From positions 1 through 64,000 of IMG/VR virus record IMGVR_UViG_3300042922_000152: 64,000 nucleotides of DNA; one strand, given 5' to 3'. Below the pieces are notes generated by a model. It saw only the letters and a list, made by a program, of their open reading frames with translations. It searched no databases and was not told the origin of the DNA. Both the position numbers and the translations under genes were made by a program. The DNA comes from a virus. Below, piece by piece: positions 2,636-14,709 of the stretch; position 1 is the stretch's first letter, and the number at the start of each line of letters is the position of its first letter.

Positions 2636-4231
2636 ATGAGCAGACGCAAAAATAAGGTATCGGCAAGAACGGTGCGCAGCGAGGCAGCACCTATTACGAA
2701 GGCCTTGGAATCTCAGAACCTCAAAGATACCAAAGAGGTAGAGATTGCAGGCATTCAAGGTGAAATACCTCCTCCGTATCCTGCAAGAGAGCTACAGAAG
2801 CTTGTTGAAATGTCTACTATCTTACAGCAATGCGTTGAGGCTTACAGGCGTAACATTGTAGGCTTTGGCGCTGTTCCTCAGTATATTGACGATGAAGTGT
2901 CAAAAGGTAAAGAAACTTCCTCTCAATTAGCTGAATGGGAACTGCTTGAAGATTGGGTCAGATACTTCTCGCCTGAGAAGGCCTTTGAAGACATTATGGG
3001 GTCTATCGTAGCTGACAAGGAGATTACAGGCAACGCATATCTCGAAGTTATCAGAGACGGTGCTGGTCTTCCTGTCGAAGGTGTACGCCTTGATCCCAAG
3101 TATGTGAAAATCACACAGCTATCCGACTTTGTTGAGGTAGATGTGATGATAGGCACAGTCAAGACAAAGCGCAAGAGGCGCTTCAGGCGCTATGTGCAAG
3201 AAATCGGTGGCACTAAGATTTATTTCAAGGCCTTCGGTGATCCTCGCATTATCGACAAGCGCTCTGGCGAAGTAGCATCAGGCTTGATTGAAGAAGAGAA
3301 TCAGGCGAACGAGGTCATTCACTTCAAGATCGGTGAAGACACATACGGCATTCCTCGCTGGATAGGTCAACTCGTTCACATGTACGGCGCGCGCAAGGCT
3401 GAGGAGCTTAACTACCGCTATTTTCATCAAGGTAGACACACTCCTATGGCAATCTTGCTGCACAATGCCGAGCTTACGCCTGAGTCTGAAGAGGAGCTTG
3501 ACGCTTATTCGAAGACTGTCGAAGGTACTGACAATGCTCACAAGTTCCTCGTGCTTGAGGCTGAAGGCGTTGGCGAAGGTATCTTGGACGATGAAAAGAA
3601 GAACGCCAAGATTGAAATCAAGTCGCTTGCTGAAATGCTGCAAAAGGACGCGCTTTTCCTTGAGTATGACGAGGCGAGCAGGCAGAAGGTACAGAGTGCT
3701 TTCAGGCTGCCCGACATCTACCTTGGTAGAAGCGCTGACTTCAATAGAGCGACTGCTGACACAGCACGTTCTATTACTGAGGAGCAGGTATTTGAGCCTG
3801 AGCGAGGCATATACGAGTGGGCTATATCCTGCCTTCTCCTTCAGCCTTTTGGTTTGAAAGAAACCAAACTCGTGTTCAAGAAGCCTGAAATCAGTGACTA
3901 CGAGAGCCTGTATAAGATTCTCGACGTTATCAACAAAATCGGCGGCGTAGCGCCTAACGATGTTCGTGACCTCCTTGGTAAGCTGTTAGGCAAGCAGCTT
4001 GAGCCGTTCGATGGTGACGAATACAACCTGCCAGCAGGTGCTATGAAGGCGAAGGCTGAAGTCGAGCAGATGCAGACAGCAACGAAGCTGTCAGTCTCAG
4101 ACGCAGCGAAGCAAAACCAGAGCGTTCAGAAAGCTACATCTGCGCGTGATGACCTGATAGACCTCCTGAAGGACTTAGGAGACATTCTTCAGGAGCAACA
4201 CGCTCAGATTGAAGGACTGACTGCCTCATGA
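2636..4231 (+). CDS. Portal protein, PBSX-type
   Basis: The portal forms the dodecameric ring at one head vertex through which DNA enters and to which the tail joins. At 531 aa it has the expected size. The N-terminal third (VEAYRRNIVGFG, then ITGNAYLEVIRDGAG and LDPKYVKI) matches the PBSX/XkdE-type portal layout, and the helical C-terminal part holds FRLPDIYLGRSADFNRATAD. A GGGGTGAG site precedes the ATG. The stop overlaps the start of the minor head protein. Confidence 0.9.
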   Translation: MSRRKNKVSARTVRSEAAPITKALESQNLKDTKEVEIAGIQGEIPPPYPARELQKLVEMSTILQQCVEAYRRNIVGFGAVPQYIDDEVSKGKETSSQLAEWELLEDWVRYFSPEKAFEDIMGSIVADKEITGNAYLEVIRDGAGLPVEGVRLDPKYVKITQLSDFVEVDVMIGTVKTKRKRRFRRYVQEIGGTKIYFKAFGDPRIIDKRSGEVASGLIEEENQANEVIHFKIGEDTYGIPRWIGQLVHMYGARKAEELNYRYFHQGRHTPMAILLHNAELTPESEEELDAYSKTVEGTDNAHKFLVLEAEGVGEGILDDEKKNAKIEIKSLAEMLQKDALFLEYDEASRQKVQSAFRLPDIYLGRSADFNRATADTARSITEEQVFEPERGIYEWAISCLLLQPFGLKETKLVFKKPEISDYESLYKILDVINKIGGVAPNDVRDLLGKLLGKQLEPFDGDEYNLPAGAMKAKAEVEQMQTATKLSVSDAAKQNQSVQKATSARDDLIDLLKDLGDILQEQHAQIEGLTAS

Positions 4232-5160
4232 GCATGGACAAACGCCTTCAGCGCATATTCAAAGCCATTGAGCGAATCACGAAGATAGAGGACGAGGAGC
4301 TTGCAGACCTCATTAAAGAGTTTCCTGAAGCTGACGCGCTTATACAGTATATTGCTGCCTACGAGAAAGACTTGGCAAAGCTGCTGAAGGAAGAGAAGAA
4401 GTTCTTCATTCAGGCTGTACAGCAGTACCTTGCAGGCGCTCAGACAGGCAACATTCTTGTACAGGCTATGCTTGACCTCGTTGTCACTGACATGCTTGCT
4501 GATGATCCCTTTGACGCAAAGCTTGCGGCACAATCGAAGGCTTTTTTGACAAAGGCTTGTCAAGAACTCTGCACGAAGATCATGGACATTATCGACAAGG
4601 ACGTACCTTTTCAAATACTCTCGCCGCGCACAACTCAATGGATTGAGTCATGGTCTGAAGACCTTGGCAAGCTCATGAAGCTGACGAGTCACGAGGCTGT
4701 AGAGAACGTCTTGAAGAAAGGCATTGCTGAAGGCCTCGGCATAGACAAGATTGTGGATGAAATGAAAGACTTGCCAGAGTTTTCACGCAGGAGAGCAAGA
4801 GCGACTGCAATCACTGAAGTCTTGACAGCATCCTCAGTATCACAGAATGAGGCCTACGCTCAATCGCCTGCTGTCGAAGGCAAGACCTGGTTGCACTCAG
4901 GCAGCAAGAAGAATAAGCCGCGAGAGCATCATGTCAAGCTGCACGATGTTACCATAGGCAAAAATGAAAAGTTTCTCATAGAAGGCCCGAAAGGCAGCTT
5001 TCAGGCTTCATTCCCGCGAGATACTGCGCTTCCTGCTTCTGAACGAGTCTTTTGTCATTGTGCATTAGCTCCTTCAGTGAATGAAAGTATACTCGGCCTG
5101 AGCAAGCAGGAAAAAGAAAGCATCAGGGAGCAGGTGTTAAGGGAGCTGGGAAAGGTGTGA
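4228..5160 (+). CDS. Minor head protein, SPP1 gp7 / Mu F family
   Basis: The start overlaps the portal stop, the usual order for this family. The N-terminal 200 residues are mostly helical. The C-terminal domain has the signature RARATAITEV, then HLSG-like WLHSGSKKNK with a following His, and ends with the conserved FCHCAL. In SPP1 and Mu such proteins bind the portal inside the prohead and aid early DNA delivery. There is no sign of a fused ADP-ribosyltransferase or toxin domain. Confidence 0.85.
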   Translation: MSMDKRLQRIFKAIERITKIEDEELADLIKEFPEADALIQYIAAYEKDLAKLLKEEKKFFIQAVQQYLAGAQTGNILVQAMLDLVVTDMLADDPFDAKLAAQSKAFLTKACQELCTKIMDIIDKDVPFQILSPRTTQWIESWSEDLGKLMKLTSHEAVENVLKKGIAEGLGIDKIVDEMKDLPEFSRRRARATAITEVLTASSVSQNEAYAQSPAVEGKTWLHSGSKKNKPREHHVKLHDVTIGKNEKFLIEGPKGSFQASFPRDTALPASERVFCHCALAPSVNESILGLSKQEKESIREQVLRELGKV

Positions 5161-5164
5161 CACT

Positions 5165-5365
5165 ATGGAATGGGATACGGAGGGAAAAACGGTGGACTCT
5201 TGTGCTGCATGTGAGTGGGACCATGAAAACGTTGCGTTTTTTAGCGCCAATCCTGGTCTTTACTTCAAATGTCCTCTTACGCTTGCGACTGTACGAATCG
5301 CACCTAATGGTTCGTATCGTGTCGTAAAAGCGAAAAACGTGGACATTCTCTTTGGAAGGGGGTGA
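5165..5365 (+). CDS. Hypothetical Cys-containing protein (66 aa)
   Basis: It sits in the short space between the minor head protein and XkdF, with AAAGGTG before the ATG. CAAC near residue 13 and one later Cys could bind a metal, but there are too few Cys for a full zinc finger. The stop lies within the next gene's ribosome site, so expression is probably coupled. Function unknown. Confidence 0.55.
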   Translation: MEWDTEGKTVDSCAACEWDHENVAFFSANPGLYFKCPLTLATVRIAPNGSYRVVKAKNVDILFGRG

Positions 5366-9900: not shown

Positions 9901-10959
9901 ATGGCAGGAGGTTCTTGGGACCCGGCTTCTGCGAAGGTGCGCCCCGGTCTTTACATCAACTTCAAAAATGCCGCTATTGCCGCTATTCAAGGCGGCGCTC
10001 GCGGTACTGTCGCTGTTCCGCTTGTGACCTATACAGGCGCAACAGCAAAGAAGCTGTATGAAGTGGCTAACGTTGCTGAAGCCTCTCAGCTTTTCGGCGC
10101 TGCAAACATCAAGCCCATTCAGCGTATTTTCAAAGGCGGTGCGAACAAGGTTATTGTGTACACCTTGCCCGCTTATGATGCGCAAACAGCCGCGCAGGAT
10201 TACATTGACATGCGCGCTGCGTTCGATACTCGCATTTTCAATGTGTTCGTGTACGCAGGCGAAGTGACGAGCGCAGAGCAGGACAACGCGCTTGCGTGGA
10301 TGCAAGGTAACAAAGCTGAGGGCAAACTGTTTCAGGTGGTATTCGGTGGCTCTGCTGCTGATGATCAAAACCCCGCAACAGGCAATGCGCGTACTACGCG
10401 CCTCGCAGACCCCTATGCTGTTAACCTGATTGTCGGCACGATTGAAAGTGGCGTTGTTATCTCGTCCGCTGAGTTCGCTGCCGAAATCGCGGGCCTGATT
10501 GCAGGAACGCCTATCAACAAGTCCATTACTTACGCACAGGTGCGTGTCGATGATGTCAGCAAGCGCCTGACAAATGCGCAGATCATCACAGCACTTCAGG
10601 CTGGCTCGCTTGTCCTTGTGCATGACGGTGAGAAGGTGAAGGTTGAGCGCGGTCTTGCTACCGACAAGAGCAAAATTCGTAAGGTGCGCGCTGAAATCGC
10701 TATTCAAACTGACATCACGAAAACAGCCAATGATAACTACATTGGCAAGATTGACAATAACACTGACGGTCAGAAGGCGCTCATTGCAGCTATCAAGGCA
10801 TTCCTTGAAACGCTGGTAACTATGAACGTCCTCACCGAGGACTTGACTGTCGGTCTGAGTGCTGATTATCCTTCTGTAGGTGACAAGGTTTACATTGACA
10901 TCAGCTTTACAGAGGTAGACAGCATGGAAGAAATCTATCTCACCATCACGGTCAACTAA
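9901..10959 (+). CDS. Contractile tail sheath protein (XkdK-like)
   Basis: At 352 aa, starting MAGGSWDP with VRPGLYINFKN, the N-terminus matches the XkdK sheath family. A central domain (IFNVFVYAGEVTSAEQDNA, then QNPATGNARTTRLADP) and a C-terminal domain ending YPSVGDKVYIDISFTEVD follow. Sheath subunits encircle the tube and contract to drive it through the cell wall, which makes this a myovirus. AGGAGG lies before the ATG, and the tube gene follows after 20 bases. Confidence 0.92.
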   Translation: MAGGSWDPASAKVRPGLYINFKNAAIAAIQGGARGTVAVPLVTYTGATAKKLYEVANVAEASQLFGAANIKPIQRIFKGGANKVIVYTLPAYDAQTAAQDYIDMRAAFDTRIFNVFVYAGEVTSAEQDNALAWMQGNKAEGKLFQVVFGGSAADDQNPATGNARTTRLADPYAVNLIVGTIESGVVISSAEFAAEIAGLIAGTPINKSITYAQVRVDDVSKRLTNAQIITALQAGSLVLVHDGEKVKVERGLATDKSKIRKVRAEIAIQTDITKTANDNYIGKIDNNTDGQKALIAAIKAFLETLVTMNVLTEDLTVGLSADYPSVGDKVYIDISFTEVDSMEEIYLTITVN

Positions 10960-10979: not shown

Positions 10980-11417
10980 ATGGCACTTGACGAAAAGCGC
11001 ATTATTAATGGTCAATATGGCGAGCTTTGGCACGAAGGTGTATGGCAAACCAACGTCATTAGCGTAGAGGCTTCCGTCGAAATCACGAAGGAAGAAGTAA
11101 ATCGCGCAGGTACTCGCTGGGTAGGTCACAAAGCTACCTCGCTTAAAGGTACAGGCACGATGCGTGGTTACAAGGTGACTTCCGACTGGGTTGAGCGTAT
11201 CGGCACTATCGCAAATGACCGCAATTCTGCCTATGTGACAGAGCTTATTATTGCTCTGAAAGACCCCGAAGCATGGGGGTCTTATCGTTTGCGTCTGAAA
11301 GGCGTTTCCTTCGACAAGATTGACCTCGTTAACTACGAGCTTGGTCAACTGGTTGAAGAAGAAATGGCCTTCACCTTCACAGGCTTTGACCTGCTGGACA
11401 AATACACAGCCGTTTAA
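10980..11417 (+). CDS. Tail tube protein (XkdM-like)
   Basis: The 145-aa protein has the beta-rich pattern of XkdM tubes (RIINGQYGELWHEG, then VNRAGTRWVGHKAT and GTGTMRGYKVTS). It polymerises into the inner tube on the tape measure. The gene follows the sheath gene and ends at a hairpin terminator, consistent with high expression of both products. Confidence 0.9.
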   Translation: MALDEKRIINGQYGELWHEGVWQTNVISVEASVEITKEEVNRAGTRWVGHKATSLKGTGTMRGYKVTSDWVERIGTIANDRNSAYVTELIIALKDPEAWGSYRLRLKGVSFDKIDLVNYELGQLVEEEMAFTFTGFDLLDKYTAV

Positions 11418-11480: not shown

Positions 11481-11906
11481 ATGAATGAAGAACTGGAGAA
11501 GAAAGAACAAACTGCCGAGGACGTACTGAATGCGCTGCTTTCGACTGAACACGTTGTACAGAAGAAAATTCACATGAAGCGCTTTGGCGTAGATTTTACT
11601 ATCTGCGCTGTTGACGGCAAGGTCATTGACCGCATTAGCGAGCGCTGTACGCGCTATGTAGGCAAAGGCAGCAAGCGCACGAAGGAAATGGATGAACTGC
11701 TGTTCGGCGCGCTGCTGATCAAGCATGGCTGTGTTGAGCCGAAATGGGATGATCAACGCCTGTTGACTGCCTATCAGACGCATGACGCCGCTGACGTTAT
11801 CAAGCTTCGCCTGCTCGCTGGCGAGATTAGCAAGCTGACCTCCGAAATCATGACTCTCAGCGGTTACGAAGATGACGAGGACAGCATTGACACGGTAAAA
11901 AACTAA
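11481..11906 (+). CDS. Tail assembly chaperone, short form (XkdN-like)
   Basis: AAGGAGG precedes the ATG. The 141-aa protein is acidic, with KKIHMKRFGVDFTICAVDG and a helical C-terminus, matching XkdN-type chaperones that coat the tape measure before the tube assembles. The last sense codons GTA AAA AAC form a classic slippery heptamer directly before two stop codons, so some ribosomes shift to -1 and make the longer product described separately. Confidence 0.85.
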   Translation: MNEELEKKEQTAEDVLNALLSTEHVVQKKIHMKRFGVDFTICAVDGKVIDRISERCTRYVGKGSKRTKEMDELLFGALLIKHGCVEPKWDDQRLLTAYQTHDAADVIKLRLLAGEISKLTSEIMTLSGYEDDEDSIDTVKN

Positions 11907-12076
11907 TAAAGGAAGGTGGCGAAGCATTTTGCTTGCACCTTGTATATCAGCGCCACCACCTTCCTCCACATGAAGTATACAACCTTCCAAAGAAACAAAA
12001 GAATTTCATGTATGCCTCTGACCTGCTCGCACTTGAGGAGGAAAAGGCCGAAGCTGATAGAATGAAACGAAAGTAG
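11481..12076 (+). CDS. Tail assembly chaperone, -1 frameshift fusion
   Basis: If ribosomes slip back one base at 11897-11903, reading continues without a stop to the TAG at 12074-12076. The extra 58 residues or so include YQRHHLPPHEVYNLP and end SDLLALEEEKAEADRMKRK. This pattern (HxLPPxEV, LPKKQK, EEEKA) is that of the extension domain made by frameshifting in many tailed phages. No separate start codon with a good ribosome site opens this frame, which supports shifting. The tape measure gene follows nine bases later. Confidence 0.85.
11897..11964 (+). promoter_or_regulatory. Programmed -1 ribosomal frameshift signal
   Basis: The heptamer A AAA AAC (11897-11903) is in the correct phase. A seven-base spacer TAATAAA follows. 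Then GGAAGGTGG (11911-11919) pairs exactly with CCACCTTCC (11956-11964), with a small inner stem AAGCA/TGCTT. This is the textbook arrangement of slippery site, spacer and stimulatory structure. Confidence 0.9.
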
Positions 12077-12084
12077 GTGACGAA

Positions 12085-14709
12085 ATGGCGGGCAAACAAT
12101 ACAGGCTGACAGCGGTCTTGTCCTTGCGTAATAAGCTTTCAGGTCAATTGTCCAAGGTTAAATCTGCTACCTCTAAGGTGGCGAAGACCGTGAGCAAAGA
12201 CATGAGCGCTATATCCCGCGCTGTATCGACAGGCGCGAAGCGAGTCAAGACTGTATCTGGTAGACTGTTTCAGCCTATCTCAGGCGCAGCGACTCAAGCG
12301 ACTATTGCAGTCAAAGGCCTTGTGTCAGCCGTGAAGAAGGTTCGCGGCATTTCTGCTCCAACAACTCGTCCGGCTACAGCAGCGCCTCCACAATCTAATG
12401 CAGTTTACTCAGGAGGACGCTGGCGTAATCCTAATACAGGACGCTTCGTAGCTGGTGCAAACGCTGCGACAAACGCCGCGATTCGCGCGACGACAGCAAC
12501 AGGAAAAACATCCACCTCCCTGAACAAGCTGACACAGAGCAACGCGCGCGCAGGTTCGAGCTTCATGTCTATGACAAAGGGTATCGTAGGCATGACTGCT
12601 GCCTTCGGCGTACTTACAGCAGCAGCGTCCCCCTTCCTGAAGGTGGTTCAAGGCATTAAAGATGCGTTCAAATTCGAAATGAACCAAGCGACGATAACAG
12701 CAATGTTCAAGGGCGACACGAAGCAAGCCGACGCATACATGAACATGCTCAGTAAACGAGCGCTTGACTCACCACTGTTTCAAGAACAAGACTATTTTCA
12801 GTATTCGAAATCGTTCGTCGGTATGTCTAAGGACATAAACCAACTGAGCGCCATGTGGGGAATCGCTGAAAGACTTGCTGCGGCTGACCCTGTACAAGGT
12901 CTTGAAGGTGCGGTATTCGCTATGCGCGAAATGTTCTCCGGTGACGCTGTTTCGATGGTTGAACGTTTTGAAATGCCGAGAGCAAAAATGAACGAAATCA
13001 AGAAACTCGACATCAATGGGCAGATTAACGCTCTTGACAAACAACTGTCAGAAATGGGTTTCGGTGCCGACTTCCTCGACAAGATTTCTGATACCGGAAC
13101 AGCTTACAAGAATCAAATTCAAGAGAAATTCCAAAAGGCGTTCAAGAACATCGGTACAGGCGCGCTTGAGGAAATGAAACCTCGTATGAAGGCCTTCAAC
13201 GAATCGCTTGATACAGGAGGCCTTGAGCAGTTTACGAAGATTGGCACGAAGGTCATGAAGACTTTCTTCAGCTACACGTTCAGAGGCTTTGACATGTTCG
13301 TGAACAAGGTAGCGAAGCCTTTCGTCAAGTGGTTCAAGGAAATGAGCGCTTGGACTTATCCTCTTGCGAAAGGAATTGGCGTTGCAATCGCAGCCTTTGC
13401 AGCTTTCAGCGCTGTGACGATGGTTATTCGCGCTGTAGGCGCTGCTATATCGTTCCTAACCTCTCCTATCGGTCTTGTCCTCGTAGCTATAGCGCTGCTG
13501 TATGCTGCGTGGGATGGAAACTGGTGGGGATTCCGTGATACGGTAATTAAGGTGTGGAACTACATCTTCCCGTATCTGACGAAGGCGTGGAACTGGATTG
13601 TCAACCTGTTCAAGACGAGTGGGCCTAAAATACAGTCAACAGTCATGTCTATGATGTCAAAGGTCAAGCAGATTTTCCTAACCTACTGGCCTATGGTAGT
13701 AAACATTGCCAAACAGGTTTGGGGAGTCCTTGTTAACATTTACAGGACGTTCGCGCCGATTATCGTGCAGGTTGTGCAGTATGCGTGGGGCTTGATTCAG
13801 CGGATCATTGCTTTTGTAATGCCCTTCATTGTCGGGCTAATTCAAAAATATGTACCGATGATTGTCAAAGCCTTTCAAACTGTCTACAACTATATTATGA
13901 TGATCATGCCGAAGGTGCTTGAGGTCATAACGCGCATTTGGAACACAATCTGGCCTATTGTCAAGTTTGCTGTTGACGTGATATGGGAAGTTGTTAAGGT
14001 GGCGTTTACGGCAATTTGGGGAATTATCGAATGGGTAATGAACCTCATTGTAAACGTCATTCGCGTTGCTTGGGATGTCGTCTCTGGCGTGTTCAACTTC
14101 TGGGTATCGCTGCTTTCAGGTGACGTTGTAGGAGCCTTTACAGGCCTGTGGGATACCGTTCAAAAGGTGTTCGGCAAGAACGGCATTACCAAAATTTTCA
14201 CAGACGCTATAGGCGGCGCTTGGGATGTTGGCAAGAACCTCGCAGGTGCGATTCGAGACGGATTCACAAACGTGTTTACGAGCTTCATTGATAATGTCAA
14301 GGGCTTGTGGGATGGGCTTACAGGCTGGTTTAAAAAGGGTGACAAGAAGATTTCTCCGCAGCTTGAAATTCCTTCTGAGGCAGAGCGCGCAGCATTTATT
14401 CCTGGAGGCTACAGCGCTGCAAGAGGCTCCTTTGGGCCTGCCCCGAAAACACCTGCCTCTATTCCTTACAAGTCGCATTCAGGTGGCCTTGATTATGTGC
14501 CTTACGATGGCTACAAGGCAAACCTGCATAAAGGCGAGCGCGTGTTAACCAAGGAAGAAAACAAAGAGCAGAGCAGCGCGCAGCGTCCTATCATCGTCAA
14601 CATTCCCAAGCTTGCTGATACTATTAATGCAAGTGACCCGAAGGACGTTGATAAGATGATGGGTATATTCGCTCGCAAACTGAATGAGTTAGGAGGCGCG
14701 CCCGCATGA
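12085..14709 (+). CDS. Tail tape measure protein
   Basis: The 874-aa protein is the longest in the window. It has a basic N-terminus rich in Lys/Ser/Ala (first 110 residues), helical and Gly/Ala-rich middle parts, many hydrophobic segments with repeated Trp-bearing helices (about 430-690), and a C-terminus with [20 protein letters not shown], common in tape measures of this group. By the usual 0.15 nm per residue, tail length would be about 130 nm. It overlaps the LysM gene by ATGA. Confidence 0.92.

What the first reader, a model, noticed from the sequence alone, without database searches (positions are those of the whole stretch)
11481..12076. Textbook -1 frameshift joins the two tail chaperone forms
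A AAA AAC in the right phase, a seven-base spacer and a nine-base-pair stem with an inner stem. The -1 frame stays open for 58 codons or so and encodes a typical chaperone extension without its own start. The 0 frame ends in tandem stop codons just after the heptamer.
Basis: seen in the sequence. Interest (0 to 1): 0.58.

Follow-up and report, generated by a model that had tools for sequence, protein, structure and literature searches.

The report
Frameshift-made tail assembly chaperone pair
A phage with a contractile tail appears to use a standard ribosome slip to make a short and a long form of its tail assembly chaperone from one gene, an ordinary and widely shared arrangement, although in this gene family the slip site almost always touches a stop codon.

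Summary
An XkdN-type tail assembly chaperone gene (Pfam Phage_TAC_5; 11481-11906) ends ...GTA AAA AAC TAA TAA, with an in-phase A AAA AAC heptamer at 11897-11903. Seven bases further on is a 9-10 bp stem. The -1 frame stays open for 57 codons (stop at 12076) and ends 8 bases before the tape measure gene.

A survey of relatives settles the reading. Of 194 distinct family loci, 191 have an in-phase heptamer leading into a -1 extension; 184 of these heptamers are exactly AAAAAAC. Downstream RNA is more structured than controls. AlphaFold models place the 0-frame product on the YqbN/HK97 chaperone fold and the extension as a confident small helical domain.

So this is a new member of the known lambda G/GT kind of programmed -1 frameshift. 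It is well supported and ordinary; no expression data were available.

One regularity seems less familiar. In 173 of 191 loci the 0-frame stop directly abuts the heptamer, and the codon choice that creates it far exceeds background usage. Whether that stop helps to set the frameshift rate is untested. Several "unknown function" small phage families appear to be pieces of this extension.

The parts
11481..11906 (+). 0-frame tail assembly chaperone (XkdN/Phage_TAC_5), 141 aa, ending in tandem TAA TAA
   Evidence: PF08890 E 3.2e-24; phrog_389 E 2.2e-29; model matches YqbN 3klu Z 13.1 and HK97 TAC 2ob9 Z 8.4
11897..11903 (+). slippery heptamer A AAA AAC, in phase
   Evidence: same heptamer in 184 of the 191 family loci that have one
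11904..11909 (+). tandem 0-frame stop codons TAA TAA, directly abutting the heptamer
   Evidence: stop abuts heptamer in 173 of 191 loci, tandem stop in 36 of those 173
11904..11910 (+). 7-nt spacer TAATAAA
   Evidence: in the family, minimum-energy folds start most often 6-8 nt after the heptamer (112 of 188)
11911..11919 (+). 5' arm of the stimulatory stem, GGAAGGTGG
   Evidence: z -3.18
11922..11934 (+). weak inner hairpin AAGC/GCUU with 5-nt loop
   Evidence: centroid structure only
11956..11964 (+). 3' arm of the stem, CCACCTTCC
11903..12076 (+). -1 frame extension (T-like domain), 57 codons and TAG; entered by the frameshift
   Evidence: AlphaFold pLDDT 92.6
10980..11417 (+). tail tube protein (context)
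   Evidence: PF09393 E 2.1e-42
9901..10959 (+). tail sheath protein (context: contractile tail)
   Evidence: PF04984/PF17482, phrog_279
12085..14709 (+). tape measure protein (context), 874 aa; its likely ribosome site AGGTG (12075-12079) overlaps the stop of the extension
   Evidence: phrog_58 E 1.3e-43; ribosome site read from sequence, inferred

Best explanation
A programmed -1 ribosomal frameshift makes two forms of a tail assembly chaperone. Most ribosomes decode GTA AAA AAC and stop at the TAA directly behind, giving the 141-residue chaperone. A minority are held by the stem 7 nt downstream, re-pair one base back on the A-run (AAA AAC to AAA AAA) and read on for 57 codons, giving a 198-residue fusion. 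[quoted passage not shown] neither form would remain in the virion. Shown here: gene family, heptamer in phase, conserved extension, excess RNA structure in the family, chaperone fold. Inferred: that slippage occurs, its rate, the ratio, and the binding roles.
For: In-phase A AAA AAC, 7-nt spacer, stem and open -1 frame. PF08890. In-phase AAAAAAC in 7 of 7 phage relatives examined, stop directly behind in 6 of 7. Across 194 distinct family loci, 191 have the heptamer with a -1 extension; 184 are AAAAAAC. A-run exactly six in 186 of 191. Mean folding z -2.61 downstream against -0.22 and -0.47 in control stretches (188 loci), and -2.15 against synonymous-codon randomisation (188 loci). Extension conserved and predicted as a folded helical domain. 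0-frame model matches YqbN and the HK97 chaperone. The XkdN-like protein gp57 of phiCD508 was not detected in purified virions by mass spectrometry (PMC11948020, passages), as expected of an assembly chaperone.
Against: No expression, proteomic or reporter data for this phage. For the window alone the stem is not clearly beyond what the encoded protein gives (12 of 100 synonymous draws fold as well). Its exact pairing register is not shared: another register shows covariation among the window and six near relatives, the window's own register shows none. Two close relatives (L009, L010) show no special downstream fold (z -0.2). In 69 of 191 loci the extension frame has a start codon between its upstream stop and its tenth codon, so separate initiation is not excluded everywhere.
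Confidence: 0.95

Rival explanations
1. Transcriptional slippage on the A-run, rather than ribosomal slippage, makes the -1 fusion: RNA polymerase adds or drops A's in a fraction of transcripts.
For: The site is an A-run. Five of 191 family loci have a run of nine A's, a length at which polymerase slippage is plausible (recalled).
Against: The run is exactly six A's in 186 of 191 loci, always in the same phase. A downstream structure, most often 6-8 nt behind, is kept in the family, which polymerase slippage does not need.
Confidence: 0.03
2. The two frames are separately translated genes: the extension is its own small protein, started at an internal codon or by re-initiation after the 0-frame stop.
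For: Some records annotate part of the extension as a separate hypothetical gene (Osiris gp024 and Abouo gp18). Start codons exist in the frame in 69 of 191 loci. In the window there is a TTG at 11933 and an ATG at 12008.
Against: 122 of 191 loci have no start codon between the upstream stop and codon ten of the extension. Conservation begins at codon 1 of the extension (LI in 178 of 191). The heptamer would have no reason to be kept in phase.
Confidence: 0.02

Closest known systems
Lambda gpG/gpGT -1 frameshift (Levin 1993; Xu, Hendrix and Duda 2004, 2013; cited in PMC5009743, originals not read)
   Same: Gene between tail tube and tape measure, short chaperone plus rare -1 extended form, in-phase heptamer near the end of the 0 frame.
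   Different: Heptamer here A AAA AAC, in lambda G GGA AAG; the stop directly abuts the heptamer here, 15 nt away in lambda; shorter extension; contractile tail.
XkdN-like tail assembly chaperones of PBSX-type phages and prophages (PF08890, phrog_389)
   Same: Same family by sequence, same gene order, same heptamer, same conserved extension.
   Different: Nothing essential; the window's stem uses its own pairing register.
P2 gpE/gpE+E' -1 frameshift
   Same: Contractile-tail phage, -1 extension between tail tube and tape measure genes (annotated in the record).
   Different: Heptamer T TTT TTG, stop 18 nt downstream; sequence relation not tested.
HK97 gp13 and B. subtilis YqbN (2ob9, 3klu)
   Same: Predicted fold of the 0-frame product: Z 8.4 (rmsd 5.0, 98 aligned) and Z 13.1 (rmsd 3.8, 111 aligned).
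   Different: HK97 gp13 shows no in-phase X XXY YYZ heptamer in the stretch scanned, though its record annotates a -1 frameshift.

Membership tests
Phage_TAC_5 (XkdN-like tail assembly chaperone) | sequence match above the curated cut-off | tested here: met
   85.8 bits against a cut-off of 27
Phage_TAC_5 (XkdN-like tail assembly chaperone) | position between tail tube and tape measure genes | tested here: met
   PF09393 at 10980-11417, phrog_58 at 12085-14709
Phage_TAC_5 (XkdN-like tail assembly chaperone) | tail assembly chaperone fold | tested here: met
   AlphaFold model, mean pLDDT 84.4; 3klu Z 13.1, 2ob9 Z 8.4
Programmed -1 ribosomal frameshift of the lambda G/GT kind | in-phase X XXY YYZ heptamer near the 0-frame stop | tested here: met
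   A AAA AAC 11897-11903
Programmed -1 ribosomal frameshift of the lambda G/GT kind | downstream stimulatory RNA structure a few nt behind the heptamer | tested here: met
   stem at 7 nt, z -3.18; family mean z -2.61, n 188; weaker against synonymous draws for the window alone
Programmed -1 ribosomal frameshift of the lambda G/GT kind | open, conserved -1 extension ending near the tape measure start | tested here: met
   57 codons, stop 12074-12076, tape measure ATG 12085; conserved in relatives
Programmed -1 ribosomal frameshift of the lambda G/GT kind | fusion protein made at a low, set ratio | not testable with these tools
   needs proteomics or a reporter
Transcriptional slippage | long homopolymer run (about nine or more; recalled) | tested here: not met
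   six A's in the window; six in 186 of 191 loci

The most novel reading that the evidence does not exclude
In this chaperone family the stop codon fused to the slippery heptamer is part of the recoding signal. A ribosome that has just decoded A AAA AAC faces UAA, UGA or UAG in the A site, and the wait for release factor, together with the stem, sets the ratio of terminated to -1 shifted chains. The ratio of the two chaperones would then follow release factor supply in the host.
Probability: 0.25. Interest if true: 0.5.

Novelty: new member of a known kind. Interest (0 to 1): 0.27.

Why it matters
As a single finding it adds one more well-formed example to a known mechanism. Two by-products are useful. 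First, the extension is mostly unannotated or split off in the public phage records opened here, and several small PHROG families of unknown function match it (phrog_4503 and phrog_10943; weaker 20560, 5646, 33439, 2722). These could be relabelled as the frameshift-encoded part of the chaperone. Second, the near-universal abutment of heptamer and stop (173 of 191; within one codon in 188 of 191) gives a simple test of whether termination competes with -1 slippage in a natural phage signal.

Tried and rejected
Two DNA-pattern scans of viral contigs, with the extension and with the 0-frame protein, confirmed no relative. The tail tube protein gave 7 loci there and 2 in genome contigs, and these seeded the genome survey. 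No Rfam family and no tRNA in the window. NCBIfam gave no match for the five proteins tried. The extension has no relative in the PDB by sequence and no significant fold match there. Its best viral fold matches are weak by E-value (0.04 and worse) and mostly unnamed small phage proteins.

Other in-phase heptamers in the window were considered. G GGA AAG at 5148-5154, near the end of ORF 4228-5160, has an open -1 frame to 5327, but that peptide overlaps another plausible ORF (5165-5365) and was not pursued. I looked for a natural in-frame fusion as support: Streptococcus phage EJ-1 reads as one ORF through the junction, but two phages about 99% alike (Javan336, MismyG) have two frames there, so a one-base difference or an error in that record is likelier, and I do not count it.

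Survey limits: 26 match rows listed were not fetched (nearly all weak matches, plus one copy split by an internal stop). Of the 206 loci scanned, one was dropped as too short (L182) and 11 as duplicates, leaving 194. The three without the signal: L017 differs at the A-run from a near-identical copy (L015) whose heptamer is intact, L095 has AAAAAAC but a short extension, L181 has no heptamer. Three loci with a distant stop were left out of the folding tests (188 of 191 used). The codon test uses clusters at about 60% identity, which are not fully independent, and the survey's own rule (heptamer within 120 nt of a stop) slightly favours near stops.

Full report
What is there. The window is G000:C1:1-64000 of a 67,830-base virus record. 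Around the finding the order is tail sheath (9901-10959), tail tube (10980-11417), chaperone (11481-11906) and tape measure (12085-14709), a contractile-tail module; a sheath initiator and a baseplate J protein follow. The chaperone ends GTA AAA AAC TAA TAA; A AAA AAC (11897-11903) is in phase. The -1 frame from 11903 encodes LIKEGGEAFCLHLVYQRHHLPPHEVYNLPKKQKNFMYASDLLALEEEKAEADRMKRK, stop 12074-12076. A stem of 9 bp plus one A-U pair begins 6-7 nt after the heptamer.

Is it more than chance? It is the only in-phase AAAAAAC in the 36 larger ORFs scanned in the first 33 kb. The downstream RNA folds better than all but 1 of 200 dinucleotide shuffles. Against synonymous-codon draws that keep the -1 protein, 12 of 100 fold as well; I think this is because the conserved GG and PP residues already favour GG/CC pairing. 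So the window's stem alone is suggestive; comparison carries the case.

Relatives. tblastn found 14 phage records with the chaperone and 4 with the extension. I examined seven representative relatives: 7 of 7 have in-phase AAAAAAC leading to a 53-65 codon extension, 6 of 7 with the stop directly behind. A wider survey used PF08890: 88 of 398 genomes drawn from the class of a Paenibacillus genome and 51 of 391 from the class of a Clostridium genome had matches. Together with the phage and virus loci, 206 loci were scanned, 194 distinct after dropping one truncated and 11 duplicate loci. 191 of 194 have an in-phase heptamer within 120 nt of the 0-frame stop and a -1 frame that runs at least 90 nt past it: 184 AAAAAAC, 5 AAAAAAA, 1 AAAAAAT, 1 AAAAAAG. 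The A-run is exactly six in 186 and nine in 5. Extension length has median 58 codons, range 47-82, and starts LI in 178 of 191.

RNA structure. For 188 of the 191 (those with the stop at most one codon away), the 72 nt after the heptamer have mean folding z -2.61, 63% below -2; the same length from the 0-frame gene gives -0.22 and from further along the extension -0.47. Against synonymous draws, mean z is -2.15 over 188 loci and -2.06 over 85 cluster representatives. In an ungapped alignment of the window and six near relatives, one pairing register shows 4 pairs with changes on both sides; the window's own register shows none, and a third, that of L002, shows 3. I read this as a structure kept while its exact pairing slides, but seven sequences are few and two of them (L009, L010) have no special fold.

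The stop next to the heptamer. In 173 of 191 loci the 0-frame stop is the next codon, in 15 one codon later, in 3 further away. Given the -1 residues Leu-Ile, only CTA or CTG as the leucine codon creates this stop. Among the 83 of 87 cluster representatives whose first extension codon is CTN: CTA 57, CTG 17, CTC 9, CTT 0, against a background in the same genes of CTG 279, CTT 274, CTC 148, CTA 87; CTA or CTG 74 observed, 37.5 expected. The absence of CTT speaks against a mere preference for an AU-rich spacer. In lambda the stop is 15 nt behind the heptamer, in TP901-1 24, in P2 18; Mu gp41 and HK97 gp13 gave no canonical in-phase heptamer in the stretch scanned. A nearby stop is known to matter elsewhere: in pea enation mosaic virus, changing the stop 3 nt behind the shift site to sense had a drastic effect on frameshifting (PMC5009743, passage). 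Whether it matters here is untested; a plain alternative is that the short form simply must end there.

Protein side. The 0-frame model (pLDDT 84.4) matches YqbN 3klu (Z 13.1, rmsd 3.8, 111 aligned) and the HK97 chaperone 2ob9 (Z 8.4, rmsd 5.0, 98 aligned); YqbN also matches by sequence (E 3.4e-20). The last ten residues of the 0-frame product (132-141), which lead into the extension, are modelled with low confidence. The extension, modelled alone, has three helices and pLDDT 92.6. The fusion as one chain was not modelled.

Annotation. I opened feature tables for this gene in 11 annotated phage records: none annotates a -1 fusion. Osiris gp024 and Abouo gp18 are in-frame parts of the extension started at an internal codon, EJ-1 reads through as one ORF, and the Lietuvens record places an ORF of a different frame there. 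PHROG families of unknown function match the extensions: phrog_4503 up to E 3.7e-36, phrog_10943 up to 4e-7.

Literature. Searches of the open library for XkdN with frameshift terms, for tail chaperones with slippery terms, for AAAAAAC with tail and for Brevibacillus gave no statement of this frameshift in XkdN genes in what I saw; I read listings and passages, not whole papers. Xu, Hendrix and Duda 2004 was not read and may list members. A possible AAAAAAC site is named for the tail assembly gene of P. larvae phage Dragolir (PMC6003738, passage), and tested tail chaperone genes of the HK97 kind shifted at 6 and 7% (PMC3711429, passage).

Verdict. Real, correctly described, and ordinary in kind: a new member of the tail-chaperone -1 frameshift group. 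The abutting stop is the one feature worth an experiment.

Noticed in passing
L176, L178, L180, L186, L187: Five family members from the clostridial survey have a run of nine A's at the junction instead of six plus C, a length at which polymerase slippage could replace ribosomal slippage.
   Followed up: no
L216 190-786 (Streptococcus phage EJ-1): The chaperone and its extension read as a single ORF, while two phages about 99% alike have two frames there; probably a one-base difference or error in the record.
   Followed up: partly
window 5148-5154: An in-phase G GGA AAG near the end of ORF 4228-5160 with a -1 frame open to 5327; it overlaps another plausible ORF, so probably chance.
   Followed up: partly
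L003 1897-2076 (Sporosarcina phage Lietuvens ORF17): The annotated hypothetical ORF overlaps the frameshift extension (1881-2051) in a different frame, so it is likely a mis-annotation.
   Followed up: partly
   Followed up: no
window 12074-12087: The stop of the extension overlaps the likely ribosome site of the tape measure gene, so frameshifted ribosomes would end right at its start; translational coupling is possible but untested.
   Followed up: no
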